A stretch of 6,026 bases of DNA from Candidatus Heimdallarchaeota archaeon (GTDB lineage Archaea; Asgardarchaeota; Heimdallarchaeia; Heimdallarchaeales; Heimdallarchaeaceae): positions 1 through 6,026 of the forward strand of contig JAGLTP010000021.1 in the NCBI GenBank assembly GCA_023135215.1, written 5' to 3'. The translations under genes and the position numbers were made by a program. Below the pieces are notes generated by a model that was not told the DNA's origin, ran no database searches, and saw only the letters and a list, made by a program, of their open reading frames with translations. Below, in pieces: positions 472-5,960 of this stretch (the stretch's first letter is position 1; each line of letters opens with the position of its first letter).

Positions 472-909
472 CTATTCTTGACTAATTCTCCAACGTATAT
501 ATTTCTCTAGTTTATCTCCTGTTGGAACAATTTCCTTATCTTCAACTATTTTATTTTCTATATCTTTTCCTTCAATCGATAGAATCCAGCCTTCTCCATA
601 AGGATCAGTGTTAATTAAATCAGGTGTTTTTCTTAATAGTTCATTTTTCTCAATTATCTCACCTGCAATAGGAGCTCGAATTTGTCCAACCCATTTTCCA
701 CTTTCATAAGTCCCTATGATTTGGTTTTTTTTCACTCGCTGTCCTTCTTTCATCATTCGAACAAATTCAATTTTCCCTGCTCTTTTTGAAGCATAATCGT
801 CTATACCTAACTGGAAGATATCCTCTGATTTTCTTTTTATCCAAATATGACCGGGATCTCTAAGAATGTAAAATAAATCATCTGGGAAATCGTATTGCTC
901 AATTTTCAT
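472..909 (-). CDS. GcvH-like lipoyl-carrier protein
   Basis: A 145-residue protein of the glycine cleavage H-protein/biotinyl-lipoyl fold, which carries a lipoyl arm on a lysine and shuttles electrons or intermediates between enzymes. Seen: HIWIK at residues 21-25 (family H-x-W), GIDDYA at 35-40 (family GITDYA), candidate lipoyl Lys72 in ESGK, then APIAGEIIEKN at 79-89 and DPYGEGWILSI at 102-112, all close to H-protein. Odd: residues just after the lysine are WVGQIR rather than the usual AASDIY of classical GcvH (ESVKA...), suggesting a paralogue rather than the glycine-cleavage subunit. No gcvT, gcvP or lipoylation gene is nearby. It is the last gene of the operon: its ATG overlaps the previous TAA by one base (TAATG), with an AGGT site 7 bases upstream (917-920). 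Family knowledge: GcvH-like LbpA proteins serve sulfur-oxidising Hdr-like complexes, so a carrier role for the neighbouring Fe-S protein is plausible but inferred. Confidence 0.85.
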   Translation of the reverse strand: MKIEQYDFPDDLFYILRDPGHIWIKRKSEDIFQLGIDDYASKRAGKIEFVRMMKEGQRVKKNQIIGTYESGKWVGQIRAPIAGEIIEKNELLRKTPDLINTDPYGEGWILSIEGKDIENKIVEDKEIVPTGDKLEKYIRWRISQE

Positions 910-2318
910 TATATAAACCTACTTGCTAATTTTAATGCTGTTTTTAAACTAATTAAGGGGAATAATTTCAATCTTGGAGAGATTACTTTCCCAGGATTAC
1001 TTATTCCTTTTGGGTCAACTTCTTTCTTGAATTCTTTATACTTTTTGTATTGTTCTTTACCAAAAATAGTCTGATAATATCCTGAAAACCATAGACCAGT
1101 GGTGTAAGGATACCCTTTAACTTTAATCCCTTTAAGTACGTTTTTGTACAAATCCAAATTGATTCGAAGTTTCTTGAAAGGACCTAGTTTTTCTTCAAAA
1201 TACAAAAACATTAGAAGTGAATAATGAGTTTTACCAATCATTTCTCCTTCAAGATGAATCTGACCTTCAATCTTTGAAGACAATTTCTGCAGATACTTAC
1301 CACTTGTTTCTATAGGTAAGATTATTTCATTAGTGAGGTAGTCCTTATATTCTTTCAACATTGCAAACGTCTTAAATCGAAAACTCCAGATATTAGTGAT
1401 GTATCTCCTGTCTAAAATTTGCCCACCTGCATTTCTTACTGTATGATTGAAACTGAGATTAAATTCGTTTTCTTCTTCTTCATAGCTAATCTCCTTAGTT
1501 ACAATAATAACATATCTTTCGGGTAGTGAGTATCCAAACGATTTGTTGATTTTTTCAACATTTTTTGGATTAAAGAACCATATAGAATAAGGATCAATTT
1601 CAGAAATTTCTTTCAATCCCTTAGCTAATTGTATAGGTGAGTCAAAGGTACATCCGAACTGTTTTAGAGGAATATCAAATTTGATTTTTAGTTGTATTCT
1701 TGTAATTAATCCTAAAGTTCCATTTGAACCAACAAATAGTTCTATATCCTCTTTCTCAGTGAACTTTTTCATTTCTCCTGTTGGTAATACAACATCCAAA
1801 GCTAGAATTTGATCTAAAGCTCCTCCATATTTAGCGCTACCCACACCATATCCACCATGAGCTATCCACCCACCAATTGTAGCAGAATGAAAACTTGAAG
1901 GGTATGAGCAGAGAGAGAAACCTTGAAGGTTCAGCTGTCTTTGCAACTCTGAAATCACTGTTGAAGGACTAACTAAAACAGATTGATCAAAAGGTTCAAT
2001 CAACAGTTCACTTTCCAAACCTTTAACGTCGACAATTATACCTTTTTTATAGGTAACACATCCACCAAAACCTGCAGTTCCACCACTTCTTGGAGTTATA
2101 GGAACTTTGTTTTCTGTTGCAAGCTCATAGAGTTTTTTCACTTCATCAGGAGTTGATGGAAGTACAACTGCATCAGCAGTATTGTTGTAAAATAATTTTG
2201 TGAGTGGAGGGAGATCTGCTAGATCTCTAGAATAAATTCGAATGGTCGTTTCATCATCTCTAAAACCTTTCCCCAAATGTCTCACGAATTTAGTACGAAC
2301 TTTGTTTTTCAATGTCAT
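909..2318 (-). CDS. FAD-binding oxidoreductase, GlcD/D-lactate dehydrogenase family (VAO/PCMH type)
   Basis: Flavoprotein of 469 residues, about family length, expected to oxidise a 2-hydroxy acid or similar substrate and pass electrons to the Fe-S protein encoded just before it. Seen: the FAD-binding PCMH domain at about 45-215, with PRSGGTAGFGG (76-86), SATIGGWIAHGGYGVGSAKY (145-164), LDVVLPTGE (174-182) and GSNGTLGLITRIQLK (197-211), all standard flavin-contact blocks; and the family ending DPKGISNPGKV (435-445). Odd: I do not find the H-x-GDGN-x-H motif that GlcD and D-lactate dehydrogenases use in their C-terminal half; the nearest sequence is GKTHYSLLMF (362-371). The substrate is therefore open. 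After NPGKV a basic, hydrophobic tail (about 449-469) could be an amphipathic docking helix. The start ATG lies inside the previous gene's stop (ATGA) and is backed by a strong GGAGGG SD site, indicating translational coupling. Confidence 0.88.
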   Translation of the reverse strand: MTLKNKVRTKFVRHLGKGFRDDETTIRIYSRDLADLPPLTKLFYNNTADAVVLPSTPDEVKKLYELATENKVPITPRSGGTAGFGGCVTYKKGIIVDVKGLESELLIEPFDQSVLVSPSTVISELQRQLNLQGFSLCSYPSSFHSATIGGWIAHGGYGVGSAKYGGALDQILALDVVLPTGEMKKFTEKEDIELFVGSNGTLGLITRIQLKIKFDIPLKQFGCTFDSPIQLAKGLKEISEIDPYSIWFFNPKNVEKINKSFGYSLPERYVIIVTKEISYEEEENEFNLSFNHTVRNAGGQILDRRYITNIWSFRFKTFAMLKEYKDYLTNEIILPIETSGKYLQKLSSKIEGQIHLEGEMIGKTHYSLLMFLYFEEKLGPFKKLRINLDLYKNVLKGIKVKGYPYTTGLWFSGYYQTIFGKEQYKKYKEFKKEVDPKGISNPGKVISPRLKLFPLISLKTALKLASRFI

Positions 2319-3502
2319 TTTTTACCCTCCACCATTCGTTTGACCAACTCAGCTATATCAATTACTTCAACATCCATTTCTCTTTGCTTAACACCATGTT
2401 GAATAGTATCTAAACATGTTGGGCACCCATTAACTACAATGTCAGCTTCTGAATATTGGATCTCAGATATAAGATGAGAATTGATTTGCTCAGCTAAATC
2501 TTCATCATTTAGTTTTAGTAAACCTCCTCCTCCACAACATAGTGCTTCTTCCCTATTAGATGGTAGTTCTTCATATCTGACATCAGGAATGTTCTGAATT
2601 ACTTCTCTCGGAGCATCACTTAATCCACAATGTCTCACTAGTTCGCAAGGATCTTTGAATGTTATTTTTTCTTTAATTGGATTAGTAGCTTTCAGTTTCT
2701 TTTCTTTGAAAAGTTCATTAGCTAATTCAGAGATATGAACTACTTCTATATCCCACTCTTCACCCAGGACTCTAGGGTAAACTATCTTAAAAGATCTATA
2801 ACAACCTGCACAAGCTGTAACTATTTTCTTAACGCCTAGTTTTTTAAATTGATCTAAATTGTGCTTTGCGAATGTTTTCCCAACGGAAAAACCACCAGCT
2901 AAGAAAATAGGAGATCCACAACATCTTTCTTCAGTTCCTAAGATAGTAAAGTTTAGTTTTGCTTTTCTAAGAATCTTAACAACACTTTCTGCTATACTTC
3001 CCATTTTACCTGAATATGATGCTTGACATCCCACAAAATATGCTAAAGGTGCTTTCTTTTGTGTTCGTCTAGACATATTCATACCACTTAATGCTGCCCA
3101 AGAAACCCTTTCTTCCGCTGGTAAACCATAGATATTAAAGAAATCTTTTACTCTGTTATAGAGAGACAGGAGTTCGGGATTCCATCTTCCCCTTCTGAAC
3201 GCTTCTTGTCTTATTTGTTCCCAAACCTTCAACAAAGGTAAATCAACAATACAAATGTCTTCACAAGCTCGACACACGGTACAAAGGAATACGCTTTCAA
3301 ATAGCTGCTTTGAGACATCAGTCTTCAGCTTATCTTTTACTTCTTCAGAATAATATAACTTAATCTGATCAAGAATTCCTCTTGGATGATAAATTTCCCA
3401 TTTAAGTTCTTTATAGGTTGGACATAATGAACAATAACCACAATATACACACTTTTGTGCTACATCTAATACGTCAACTTGCCAACCTTGTGGAGAACTC
3501 AT
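2315..3502 (-). CDS. (Fe-S)-binding protein, GlcF/HdrD-like, with two CCG domains
   Basis: Electron-transfer subunit of 395 residues resembling GlcF of glycolate oxidase and HdrD of heterodisulfide reductase; probably cytoplasmic or membrane-associated, with no transmembrane helix seen. Domains in order: a ferredoxin-type site at C18, C21, C24, C27 followed by Pro; a second at C74, C77, C80, C84; a first CCG domain with C159, C194-C195-G and C231-x2-C234; a second with C286, C322-C323-G and C360-x2-C363. Spacings (34 and 35 residues between elements) match the HdrB-type motif that ligates non-cubane [4Fe-4S] clusters used in disulfide reduction. Odd: the first ferredoxin site is CxxCxxCxxCP, one residue shorter than usual before the last Cys, and the second ends CI rather than CP. 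It is the first gene of the operon; the ATG has no SD but a TATA-like box about 34 bases upstream. Its stop overlaps the FAD gene start by four bases. Confidence 0.9.
   Translation of the reverse strand: MSSPQGWQVDVLDVAQKCVYCGYCSLCPTYKELKWEIYHPRGILDQIKLYYSEEVKDKLKTDVSKQLFESVFLCTVCRACEDICIVDLPLLKVWEQIRQEAFRRGRWNPELLSLYNRVKDFFNIYGLPAEERVSWAALSGMNMSRRTQKKAPLAYFVGCQASYSGKMGSIAESVVKILRKAKLNFTILGTEERCCGSPIFLAGGFSVGKTFAKHNLDQFKKLGVKKIVTACAGCYRSFKIVYPRVLGEEWDIEVVHISELANELFKEKKLKATNPIKEKITFKDPCELVRHCGLSDAPREVIQNIPDVRYEELPSNREEALCCGGGGLLKLNDEDLAEQINSHLISEIQYSEADIVVNGCPTCLDTIQHGVKQREMDVEVIDIAELVKRMVEGKK
2325..2330 (-). promoter_or_regulatory. Strong Shine-Dalgarno site for the FAD oxidoreductase gene
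   Basis: The minus strand reads GGAGGG six bases before the ATG at 2318, within the last codons of the upstream Fe-S gene (the Glu-Gly of its C-terminal VEGKK). It is the best ribosome-binding site in the window and fixes the start of the FAD gene. The other within-operon starts at 909 and 5694 carry only AGGT, each with a 7-base spacer. Confidence 0.7.
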
Positions 3503-4248: not shown

Positions 4249-4277
4249 ATGTAGATTGTAATTTATTATTGAAATAT

Positions 4278-5684
4278 ATGATTATCTCAACAGGGATAAA
4301 TGAGTTAGACAAGATGATAGATGGAGGGTTAAGGACAAGTTACTGTTATGCTATCAAAGGAACGGCAGGAGCAGGAAAAACTGTTCTCTCATTGTTTATC
4401 ACACATGGTGCATTACTTCAAGATATTCCAGTATTGTTTATTTCCACAGAAGTCGATCCTGATAAAATAGTTGAATATGGTAAATCCTTTGGAATGGATT
4501 TACAACCTTACATAAAAAATGGTAAATTAAGTGTAGAAAAAATGACGCTTAAACCACAAGGAGTCCATCTTGTTCAAACTGAAAGATTTGACCTTTCCGG
4601 TATAATTACAAGAACTAAAGCCAAAATGCAAAAGATCAAAGCAAAATTAGTTATTTTTGATTCTATCTCCGCATTCTTTGCAGAGTTTCAATATGAGAAA
4701 ACAGCAAGAAGCAATTTTATGGATTTCATTAGAGAAATCACAAACGAAGATGCCGTACTTATATTCACAGCTGAATCACAAGTTGCTGAAGAATATGCGA
4801 CTCTTGAAGAATTCTTAGTAGATGGTGTAATTAAAATAAGAACTGAACTAAAAAATAATCAACTTATCAAAAAAATATCTGTCCCTAAACTTAGGTCAGC
4901 ACAACCAACCCATTTCGAGAACAGATTTATGATAGATAAAAAGGGAGTTACAATCTTCCGTTCAGAACATCCTCCCATATCTTTAATTGATGAAGAGAAA
5001 ACAGGAATAGGAAAACTAGATGTTTTATTAGGTGGAGGAATTCCTACTGGAAGTGTCATTCTTATTGAGATGGATGGAGAAACAAATTACTTCCCCTTAT
5101 TCTTAACTACTATGTATCATCATTTAAATGAAGGTAAGGGAGTAATTATTCATTCTAATGTACATATGTATTCATCCAAAATCGTGGAGGAATTTAAGAG
5201 ATCGAAAAGTGATATTACTCCCCATCTTAATGAAGGGAATGTAGTATTCATTGACAAGTATAATCGTTCAGTCACAGCAGTTGAAGCAAGAGAGATGAGC
5301 CAATTAATGACAACTGATGATATGATCTCAGTGACAGTTGAATTAATGGAAGCATTTGCACAAGCAAAACAAAAAGTAGTCTTATTTGGTGATTTAACAG
5401 ATGATGCAAACATCCTATCTGAATCTGATTTCCTTCGTTATTTTGCTCTTCAATCTTTCAATATTAAAGAAAGACGAGCTGTAGCTTATTCATTCATCAA
5501 CTTCAATGCTATAAGTAGGGAAATTCTTGCTAGATTGAGAACTACAGCTGATATAATCATAAGATTCTCTAGAGTAGACTATAATCACTATATAGAATGT
5601 CTGAAGAGCTCAACAGGAGCTACATTCTTACCAAAAATCGTAAAATTCAACGATACTATCCCACTAATTGAAATCATTGGTTAG
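4278..5684 (+). CDS. KaiC-like RecA-superfamily ATPase, double domain with degenerate second half
   Basis: A 468-residue protein from the ATG; an in-frame TTG at 4269 would add three residues. KaiC-like ATPases are widespread in archaea, mostly of unknown, probably signalling, function; this one does not imply a circadian clock. Seen, in ATG numbering: TGINELDKMIDGG (5-17), the family entry motif; Walker A GTAGAGKT (28-35); STE with a candidate catalytic Glu (56-58); Walker B LVIFDS (124-129); and KLRSAQPTHFENRFMI (204-219), the usual end of a KaiC/RadA domain. The second repeat restarts at TGIGKLDVLLGGGIPTG (242-258), but its P-loop position reads IEMDGETNY (264-272) with no GK(T/S), and the Walker B equivalent is VVLFGD (367-372). 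The second domain has therefore probably lost ATP hydrolysis and may be structural or regulatory. Nine bases separate its stop from the thioredoxin-like gene, so the two are likely co-transcribed. No SD precedes either start. Confidence 0.88.
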   Translation: MIISTGINELDKMIDGGLRTSYCYAIKGTAGAGKTVLSLFITHGALLQDIPVLFISTEVDPDKIVEYGKSFGMDLQPYIKNGKLSVEKMTLKPQGVHLVQTERFDLSGIITRTKAKMQKIKAKLVIFDSISAFFAEFQYEKTARSNFMDFIREITNEDAVLIFTAESQVAEEYATLEEFLVDGVIKIRTELKNNQLIKKISVPKLRSAQPTHFENRFMIDKKGVTIFRSEHPPISLIDEEKTGIGKLDVLLGGGIPTGSVILIEMDGETNYFPLFLTTMYHHLNEGKGVIIHSNVHMYSSKIVEEFKRSKSDITPHLNEGNVVFIDKYNRSVTAVEAREMSQLMTTDDMISVTVELMEAFAQAKQKVVLFGDLTDDANILSESDFLRYFALQSFNIKERRAVAYSFINFNAISREILARLRTTADIIIRFSRVDYNHYIECLKSSTGATFLPKIVKFNDTIPLIEIIG

Positions 5685-5693
5685 GTAGATAAG

Positions 5694-5960
5694 ATGGAAC
5701 TAAAAGTAATGTTCTTCACAAGTCCAACATGTGGTTGGTGTCCATTTATTGAAGGAATATTAAAGAAAATAATCGAAGAAGTAGATCATTTGACTTTGGA
5801 TGTTATTGATATTTCTAAAGAAGTGGATAAAGCTGAAGAATATGAAATAGTTGCTATCCCAACTATCATCCTTCCAAATAACCAGAGAATAATTGGAGGA
5901 GCTGATGAAGCCTTTATTAGAGAACAACTGGATTTCTTTGTGTTTATGGGACAAAGTTAA
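5694..5960 (+). CDS. Small thioredoxin/glutaredoxin-fold protein
   Basis: An 88-residue protein with a minimal thioredoxin fold, likely a cytoplasmic thiol-disulfide oxidoreductase; no signal peptide or membrane segment is seen. Seen: a first beta strand LKVMFFTSPT (3-12), redox motif CGWC at Cys13-Cys16, and the cis-proline loop VAIPTIIL (53-60, Pro56), followed by a GG turn (68-69) and a C-terminal helix. The length matches small archaeal glutaredoxin-like thioredoxins (about 85 residues). The dipeptide between the cysteines, Gly-Trp, differs from the Gly-Pro of thioredoxin and the Pro-Tyr of glutaredoxin, which should shift its redox potential. The ATG is nine bases past the KaiC-like stop, with an AGGT site (5683-5686) 7 bases upstream, so it is probably the second gene of that operon. 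Its partner protein is unknown; the ATPase upstream is a candidate. Confidence 0.85.
   Translation: MELKVMFFTSPTCGWCPFIEGILKKIIEEVDHLTLDVIDISKEVDKAEEYEIVAIPTIILPNNQRIIGGADEAFIREQLDFFVFMGQS

What the first reader, a model, noticed from the sequence alone, without database searches (positions are those of the whole stretch)
472..3502. Co-translated HdrD-like / FAD oxidase / lipoyl-carrier cassette
Seen: three genes on the minus strand with ATGA and TAATG junctions encode an Fe-S protein with two complete CCG motifs, a GlcD-family flavoprotein and a GcvH-like protein with a candidate lipoyl lysine. Known: CCG domains of HdrB/HdrD bind non-cubane clusters that act on disulfides, and lipoate-binding GcvH-like proteins (LbpA) work with sulfur-oxidising Hdr-like complexes. 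Inference: the flavoprotein and Fe-S protein may exchange electrons with the lipoyl disulfide of the carrier, forming a compact substrate:lipoamide oxidoreductase. I do not recall this exact trio being described, but cannot check that.
Basis: partly seen in the sequence, partly recalled or inferred. Interest (0 to 1): 0.75.

Follow-up and report, generated by a model that had tools for sequence, protein, structure and literature searches.

The report
Lipoyl carrier with Hdr-like redox pair
Three coupled genes in a Heimdall-type archaeon encode a likely lipoic-acid carrier protein and two partner redox proteins; similar sets recur in bacteria beside lipoic-acid assembly genes, so it looks like a little-known way of moving electrons through bound lipoic acid.

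Summary
Window 472-3502 (minus strand) holds C (HdrD/TfrB-like, ligands of two ferredoxin and two CCG clusters), F (GlcD-fold flavoprotein) and H (GCV_H fold, lipoyl-type Lys72), overlapping by ATGA and TAATG. C-F-H is conserved in 21 of 21 Asgard genomes with F at E<1e-200.

H is not the glycine-cleavage H: at least 18 of 23 genomes of that clade have another H gene beside GcvP, and the tree puts trio-H in a KW-motif clade beside sHdr LbpA, though it lacks LbpA's two cysteines.

In a Bacillota sample, 13 genomes carry a related F-C pair; 12 of 13 also have H and lipoate-assembly genes nearby, and 7 of 13 have an E2 gene, with no recognisable E3 in the 12 neighbourhoods searched.

F lacks both catalytic motifs of GlcD/D-lactate dehydrogenases. 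Heimdall trio genomes have glycine cleavage, LipA and LplA genes but almost no clear dihydrolipoyl dehydrogenase.

Best reading: lipoyl-H is the disulfide partner of C; C and F oxidise dihydrolipoyl groups, standing in for E3 (0.42). Rival: substrate:lipoamide oxidoreductase (0.25). Lipoylation, direction and acceptor are inferred.

The parts
2315..3502 (-). C: HdrD/TfrB-like Fe-S protein, 395 aa, first gene of the trio
3251..3451 (-). two [4Fe-4S] ferredoxin-type motifs of C (C18/21/24/27, C74/77/80/84)
   Evidence: invariant in the 49-row alignment
2801..3028 (-). CCG motif 1 of C (C159, C194, C195, C231, C234)
2414..2647 (-). CCG motif 2 of C (C286, C322, C323, C360, C363)
2315..2318 (-). 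ATGA overlap of C stop and F start
909..2318 (-). F: FAD_binding_4 flavoprotein of the GlcD/D-lactate dehydrogenase fold, non-canonical, 469 aa
1227..1265 (-). place in F where canonical enzymes have GHxGDGNxH; absent here
   Evidence: alignment
1074..1115 (-). GYPYTTGLWFSGYY in F, where canonical enzymes have EHGxG
   Evidence: alignment
909..911 (-). TAATG junction: F stop (TAA, 909-911) overlaps the H start codon by one base
472..909 (-). H: GcvH-fold lipoyl-type carrier of the KW-motif (LbpA-side) clade, 145 aa, no cysteine
685..705 (-). ESGKWVG lipoyl motif of H; candidate lipoyl Lys72 at 694-696
   Evidence: sequence; Lys invariant

Best explanation
The trio is a dedicated lipoyl-carrier redox module. 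Steps: (1) H is lipoylated on Lys72 by the cell's LplA/LipA (genes shown in relatives; modification inferred). (2) The dithiol/disulfide of lipoyl-H is the thiol partner of the non-cubane clusters of C, in the way CoM-S-S-CoB is for HdrB/HdrD (inferred from clusters, fold, and the repeated coupling of KW carriers with CCG proteins). (3) C passes electrons through its ferredoxin clusters to or from the FAD of F (inferred from the operon and from GlcD-GlcF, recalled). (4) Since F has lost the 2-hydroxyacid catalytic residues, F is more likely an electron-outlet flavoprotein than a classical substrate oxidase (inferred). (5) Most likely net flow: dihydrolipoyl groups of the glycine cleavage H protein (Heimdall) or of E2 (Bacillota clusters) -> lipoyl-H -> C -> F -> unknown acceptor (ETF, ferredoxin or quinone pool), i.e. 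an NAD-independent stand-in for dihydrolipoyl dehydrogenase (E3/L-protein) (inferred). Steps 1-2 are better supported than step 5.
For: C-F-H in 21 of 21 Asgard genomes with F at E<1e-200. H lies in the KW clade, split 98/97 from the GcvH side and next to sHdr-type LbpA at 96/91. Of 80 H loci from one scan, 16 of 29 with Lys-Trp at the lipoyl site have a C-like protein in the held stretch, 0 of 51 without it (recounted without hand-sorting, Fisher p 2.5e-9; loci not independent). Bacillota sample of 398: 13 with F at E<1e-150; C adjacent in 13 of 13, H in 12 of 13; lipoate-assembly genes in 12 of 13, E2 in 7 of 13, the fullest being E1a-E1b-AcoX-E2-LplA-LipB-LipA-H-F-C-H2-LipT-LipS2-LipS1 (some families). 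No E3 with its redox-disulfide part in the 12 enlarged neighbourhoods. F lacks both catalytic motifs. Heimdall clade G017-G039: GcvP 22 of 23; GcvT and GcvPA over cut-off beside GcvH in G018; LipA 20 of 23, LplA 21 of 23; no strong E2 (best 60.5 bits against 274-298 in sister genomes); Lpd over cut-off in 1 of 23, that one lacking the second redox cysteine; single-contig G018 has only a 1e-43 match to profile 105-435.
Against: 11 of the 13 Bacillota genomes have an over-cut-off Lpd elsewhere, so there E3 is not missing from the cell. 8 of 23 Heimdall-clade genomes have an Lpd-related flavoprotein below cut-off at E<=1e-70; the 4 read keep CTWTGC, and the one scanned scores best, below cut-off, as 'FAD-containing oxidoreductase': these could serve as L-protein. 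The contrast with G040-G066 (Lpd over cut-off 21 of 27) is one phylogenetic contrast and confounded: of 10 of those genomes searched for E2, 7 have a strong E2 and in all 7 an Lpd lies on the same contig within 1.6 kb. Other Asgard genomes with GcvP and no trio (e.g. G200-G203, G205-G207) also show only sub-cut-off Lpd. The missing GlcD motifs are not peculiar to trio F: the 17 more distant F in L210-L226, without H nearby, lack them too. Canonical GlcD-HdrD fusions beside ESGKW/ETGKW carriers (L004, L011) favour a substrate oxidase there. No structure of the complex, no lipoylation data.
Confidence: 0.42

Rival explanations
1. Substrate:lipoamide oxidoreductase: F oxidises an unknown substrate, electrons go through C onto the lipoyl disulfide of H, and dihydrolipoyl-H feeds a reductive step elsewhere.
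For: GlcD-like fold with Arg314 invariant in 41 rows; in L004 and L011 an ESGKW/ETGKW carrier sits in one cluster with a GlcD-HdrD fusion that keeps GHxGDGNxH and EHGxG, with a LarA-family racemase in L011 and an HgdB-like gene in L004; Dld-HdrD pairs in Asgard MAGs were read as lactate oxidation onto CoM/CoB in PMC9723677 (passages).
Against: Both catalytic motifs absent in the window's F and in the 13 Bacillota F of trio type; 7 of 13 Bacillota clusters carry E2, a dihydrolipoyl producer.
Confidence: 0.25
2. LbpA-like sulfur carrier: lipoyl-H binds sulfane sulfur and C-F oxidise it, a reduced sHdr system.
For: H is next to sHdr-type LbpA and shares ESGKWVG; C has HdrB-type fold.
Against: No cysteine in H, whereas LbpA has two conserved ones except in some archaea (PMC6067878 section 6); no sulfur-transferase family among the seven window ORFs scanned.
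Confidence: 0.12
3. Maturation role: C-F-H supplies or stores electrons or sulfur for lipoate assembly itself.
For: Lipoate-assembly genes in 12 of 13 Bacillota clusters.
Against: Not recognised next to the trio in the two enlarged Heimdall stretches read (L169, L170, read by eye); in Bacillota the E1/E2 genes also need lipoate.
Confidence: 0.08
4. F-C is an ordinary flavoprotein/Fe-S dehydrogenase and H is a neighbour that serves the glycine cleavage system.
For: Related F-C pairs occur without H in the stretch held (L171, L178; L210-L226).
Against: Overlapping genes, own H clade, another H beside GcvP in at least 18 of 23 genomes, H coupling re-found in Bacillota.
Confidence: 0.08

Closest known systems
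sHdr-LbpA sulfur oxidation system (LbpA; PMC6067878, PMC10332631)
   Same: GcvH-fold lipoyl carrier with ESGKW-type motif (seen in L057, whose cluster matches HdrC, HdrB, HdrA and LipS1), linked to CCG-cluster proteins and lipoate-assembly genes
   Different: C is one HdrD-type chain; a GlcD-fold F is present; H lacks the two LbpA cysteines; no sulfur-transfer family in the window
HdrDE / HdrABC heterodisulfide reductase
   Different: no CoM/CoB evidence; flavoprotein partner; a protein-bound lipoyl group would replace the heterodisulfide
GlcDF / LctD-EtfAB / Dld-HdrD lactate or glycolate dehydrogenases
   Different: F lacks GHxGDGNxH and EHGxG; a lipoyl carrier is added
Dihydrolipoyl dehydrogenase (E3, L-protein)
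   Same: proposed job only: reoxidising dihydrolipoyl groups
   Different: different proteins: Fe-S and FAD chain instead of a disulfide/FAD/NAD enzyme
Glycine cleavage H protein (GcvH)
   Same: GCV_H fold and lipoyl lysine
   Different: ESGKW motif, separate clade, below NCBIfam gcvH cut-offs, not beside GcvT/GcvP
Mycobacterial EtfD
   Different: EtfD is a longer chain (742 residues in 9ojn); its membrane part and ETF partner are recalled

Membership tests
GcvH of the glycine cleavage system | NCBIfam cut-offs | tested here: not met
   TIGR00527 86.6 of 115.85 bits; NF002270 105.3 of 117
GcvH of the glycine cleavage system | groups with GcvH in a tree | tested here: not met
   split 98/97 from the GcvH side, 46 rows
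GcvH of the glycine cleavage system | lipoyl lysine | tested here: met
   Lys72 invariant
sHdr LbpA | groups within LbpA | tested here: not met
   outside the eight-row LbpA clade (100/99), next to it at 96/91; a ninth LbpA-labelled row, L005_3, lies elsewhere; only L057's context was checked by families
sHdr LbpA | two conserved cysteines (some archaeal LbpA excepted) | tested here: not met
   0 Cys in window H; criterion from PMC6067878; the archaeal exception weakens this test
sHdr LbpA | genes in a shdr cluster | tested here: not met
   seven window ORFs scanned
HdrD/HdrB CCG proteins | two complete CCG cluster motifs | tested here: met
HdrD/HdrB CCG proteins | acts on a disulfide | not testable with these tools
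   needs enzymology
TfrB, GlpC, GlcF (named CCG families) | NCBIfam cut-offs | tested here: not met
   TfrB 185.6 of 385; GlpC 106 of 278; GlcF 71.9 of 333
GlcD / D-2-hydroxyacid dehydrogenase | fold | tested here: met
GlcD / D-2-hydroxyacid dehydrogenase | motifs GHxGDGNxH and EHGxG | tested here: not met
   catalytic and metal roles recalled
GlcD / D-2-hydroxyacid dehydrogenase | NCBIfam cut-off | tested here: not met
   TIGR00387 114.4 of 567.9
Lipoylated protein | lipoate on Lys72 | not testable with these tools
   genes in relatives only

The most novel reading that the evidence does not exclude
KW-motif lipoyl carriers are a general protein-bound counterpart of the CoM-S-S-CoB heterodisulfide: across archaea and bacteria they partner CCG proteins with different outlets (non-canonical flavoprotein F, GlcD, NarI-like membrane protein, sHdr), and in Heimdallarchaeaceae and Bacillota the C-F-H form is an NAD-independent replacement for dihydrolipoyl dehydrogenase.
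Probability: 0.35. Interest if true: 0.85.

Novelty: new variant of a known kind. Interest (0 to 1): 0.64.

Why it matters
Lipoate was characterised in five multienzyme complexes (PMC6067878, passage) and then in sHdr sulfur oxidation. A further, widely spread use, with a lipoyl protein as the disulfide partner of an Hdr-type Fe-S protein, would explain part of the reported LipS1/LipS2 genomes that lack sHdr (PMC10332631 section 8) and would give an electron route from glycine or 2-oxoacid oxidation that bypasses NADH, in archaea close to the origin of eukaryotes (recalled). It opens simple tests: lipoylation, and redox coupling of three modest-sized proteins.

Tried and rejected
Glycine-cleavage H: rejected (own clade, another H beside GcvP). 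Plain 2-hydroxyacid dehydrogenase: F motifs absent. Genuine LbpA: no cysteines, outside the clade. 'E3 absent from all trio genomes': not true for Bacillota. Sister-lineage Lpd contrast as independent proof: rejected, since those Lpd genes lie near E2. Own-genome search: none held. Complex prediction: not tried, since joined chains would not be a sequence of the window; C and F were folded apart.

Literature: ten searches in an open-access PMC library; no title or abstract start listed describes this trio. Papers seen: PMC6067878 passages and section 6; PMC10332631 passages and section 8; PMC9723677 passages; the rest only in listings.

Rows dropped and limits: the H tree kept 46 rows; L002, L011, L019, L030, L060, L069 and L080 were asked for but gave no H ORF with my caller, and not every known H copy of each locus entered. 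LbpA and GCS labels in the tree are mine; by families I checked only L057 (HdrA/B/C-like, all below named cut-offs; LipS1 over cut-off) and L111 (GcvT, GcvPA over cut-off). My ORF caller keeps the longest non-overlapping frames, so some listed ORFs are spurious. L203 shows H only as a 135-nt partial match; L232, the same place enlarged, has a further H match downstream of C. In one search I had sorted two loci (L010, L013) by hand; one search repeats the count by rule, with the same result. One search scored only six candidates per genome; one search scored all or 42 for the Heimdall clade. The 13 KW loci counted as lacking C include L057, which has HdrB-like proteins that my C query missed.
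Full report
What is there. The window comes from an archaeon close to Heimdallarchaeaceae: the best named matches of all three proteins carry that name or Heimdallarchaeota. On the minus strand lie C (2315-3502), F (909-2318) and H (472-909), joined by ATGA and TAATG. Upstream on the same strand is a tRNA-intron endonuclease, downstream a BacA/UppP gene cut by the window edge; a KaiC-like ATPase and a thioredoxin-like gene run the other way.

H. GCV_H fold with Lys72 in ESGKWVG. In a tree of 46 H proteins, 13 rows (GcvH, the degenerate Heimdall copies and a Jordarchaeia row with ESVKA) split from 33 others at 98/97. The window's H lies with the six Heimdall trio rows (100/99), then with two Thorarchaeota rows (90/78) and five Bacillota rows (89/82; neither starred), then beside eight LbpA rows (96/91). 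The other Bacillota carriers fall in two further places, so H near F-C is not one clade.

Conservation. A search of 227 Asgard genomes with an F alignment gave 21 with E<1e-200; all 21 have C-F-H in order. Two more genomes numbered within that group, G031 and G036, show no F at the cut-off used. A 398-genome Bacillota sample gave 13 with F at E<1e-150: C is adjacent in 13, H in 12. One of the 13 is L010's own genome, and other rows of the query alignment (P0100-P0104) may come from some of the rest. The 17 lower-scoring F loci fetched (L210-L226) showed no H in their short stretches.

Context. In one search the Bacillota clusters read: L231 E1a-E1b-AcoX-E2-LplA-LipB-LipA-H-F-C-H2-LipT-LipS2-LipS1; six more (L227-L230, L232, L233) have E2 with parts of this; L236-L238 have F-C-H with LplA, LipT, LipS2 and LipS1; L010 and L234 have LplA-H-F-C followed by genes that look like methionine salvage (by eye; S-adenosylhomocysteine hydrolase checked); L235 has only F-C. 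Labels rest on matches to reference ORFs. Families were checked for E1b and LipB (over cut-off), LipS2 (242 of 270 bits), a geranylgeranyl-reductase-like protein that I call LipT by position, and an E2 (below the named cut-offs) with an AhpD domain; and for LplA, LipS1 and LipS2 in Asgard loci. AcoX is recalled. In L227-L238 no E3 with its redox-disulfide part was found; two distant matches, in L235 and L237, begin after that part.

Lipoate and E3 in the Heimdall clade (G017-G039, 23 genomes). H-type genes 2-4 per genome; in at least 18 of 23 one lies beside GcvP (coordinates). LplA catalytic domain 21 of 23, LipA 20 of 23 (the two outgroup genomes in that call have none), GcvP 22 of 23. Lpd over cut-off 1 of 23, and that protein reads GGVCLNWGG, without the second cysteine; 8 of 23 have a weaker match at E<=1e-70, of which the 4 read keep CTWTGC. 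In G040-G066, 21 of 27 are over cut-off (lists typed). That contrast is confounded: of 10 of those genomes searched for E2, 7 have a strong one, each with an Lpd on the same contig within 1.6 kb, while the trio clade shows only weak E2-like matches (best E 1e-16). So in the trio clade glycine cleavage is the only lipoyl enzyme that I found, with no clear L-protein; I did not search for others.

Linkage of KW carriers with CCG proteins. Of 80 loci, 29 have Lys-Trp at the lipoyl site, 16 of them with a C-like protein in the held stretch; 51 lack it, none with one. Many of the 16 look like sHdr-type loci and the scan pattern favoured ESGKW, so the p value is only a guide. Three Chloroflexota loci have H and C (L016, L024, L036); in L036 a NarI-like membrane protein lies between.

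Interpretation. Steps 1 and 2 (H lipoylated; lipoyl-H the partner of C) rest on motif, genes, tree and repeated linkage. Step 5 (oxidation of dihydrolipoyl groups in place of E3) rests on F's lost motifs, on E1-E2 clusters without E3 and on the Lpd gap in Heimdall. Against it: 11 of 13 Bacillota genomes have Lpd elsewhere, and other Asgard genomes with GcvP and without the trio also have only sub-cut-off Lpd.

Known and new. F-C pairs (Dld-HdrD) are in print for other Asgard lineages (PMC9723677, passages); LbpA with sHdr is known (PMC6067878, PMC10332631). The triple with a non-LbpA KW carrier was not found in ten searches of an open-access library. I file it as a new variant of Hdr/lipoyl-carrier systems.

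Noticed in passing
L140, L121, L138, L134 (Heimdall genomes): A further GcvH-like protein of about 156-159 aa without the lipoyl lysine (IDSIE-type stretch in its place), beside a gene that looks like PheS (by eye), in three of the four also a HAD-like gene.
   Followed up: partly
L171, L172, L178, L179, L180 (Asgard genomes, L180 from a Thorarchaeota record): F relatives of about 646-676 aa; in L171 the C-terminal part is NuoB-like (PF01058). They lie in what look like Nuo operons with a C relative close by and no H seen.
   Followed up: partly
G018-G039: 2 to 12 matches per genome to parts of the E2 catalytic domain (PF00198), often two in one frame of about 270-300 aa, all weak, while no strong E2 is found.
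   Followed up: no
L036:7962-10568, also L024: Chloroflexota: ESGKW carrier, NarI-like membrane protein (L036) and HdrD-like protein in a row, like an HdrDE with its own lipoyl carrier.
   Followed up: partly
L010:7986-16322, L234: Bacillota LplA-H-F-C followed by genes resembling MtnP, MtnA, S-adenosylhomocysteine hydrolase (checked) and a deaminase.
   Followed up: no
L011:8001-12369: ETGKW carrier, LarA-family racemase and a canonical GlcD-HdrD fusion in one cluster.
   Followed up: partly
L227:11278-12861: E2 acyltransferase fused to an AhpD domain in the lipoate/E2/H-F-C cluster; in L228 the AhpD-like protein is a separate gene.
   Followed up: partly
L170:10445-11455; similar ORF starts in L123 and L136: Arf/Ras-like GTPase gene (Pfam Arf in L170) downstream of the trio and UppP in relatives.
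   Followed up: no
window 4275-5960: KaiC-like two-domain ATPase followed closely by an 88-aa thioredoxin-like protein (CGWC), running opposite to the trio.
   Followed up: no
L005:4080-7986 and L023:1852-5902: ORFs that look like ETF subunits and an EtfD-like protein (by eye) beside KW carriers.
   Followed up: no
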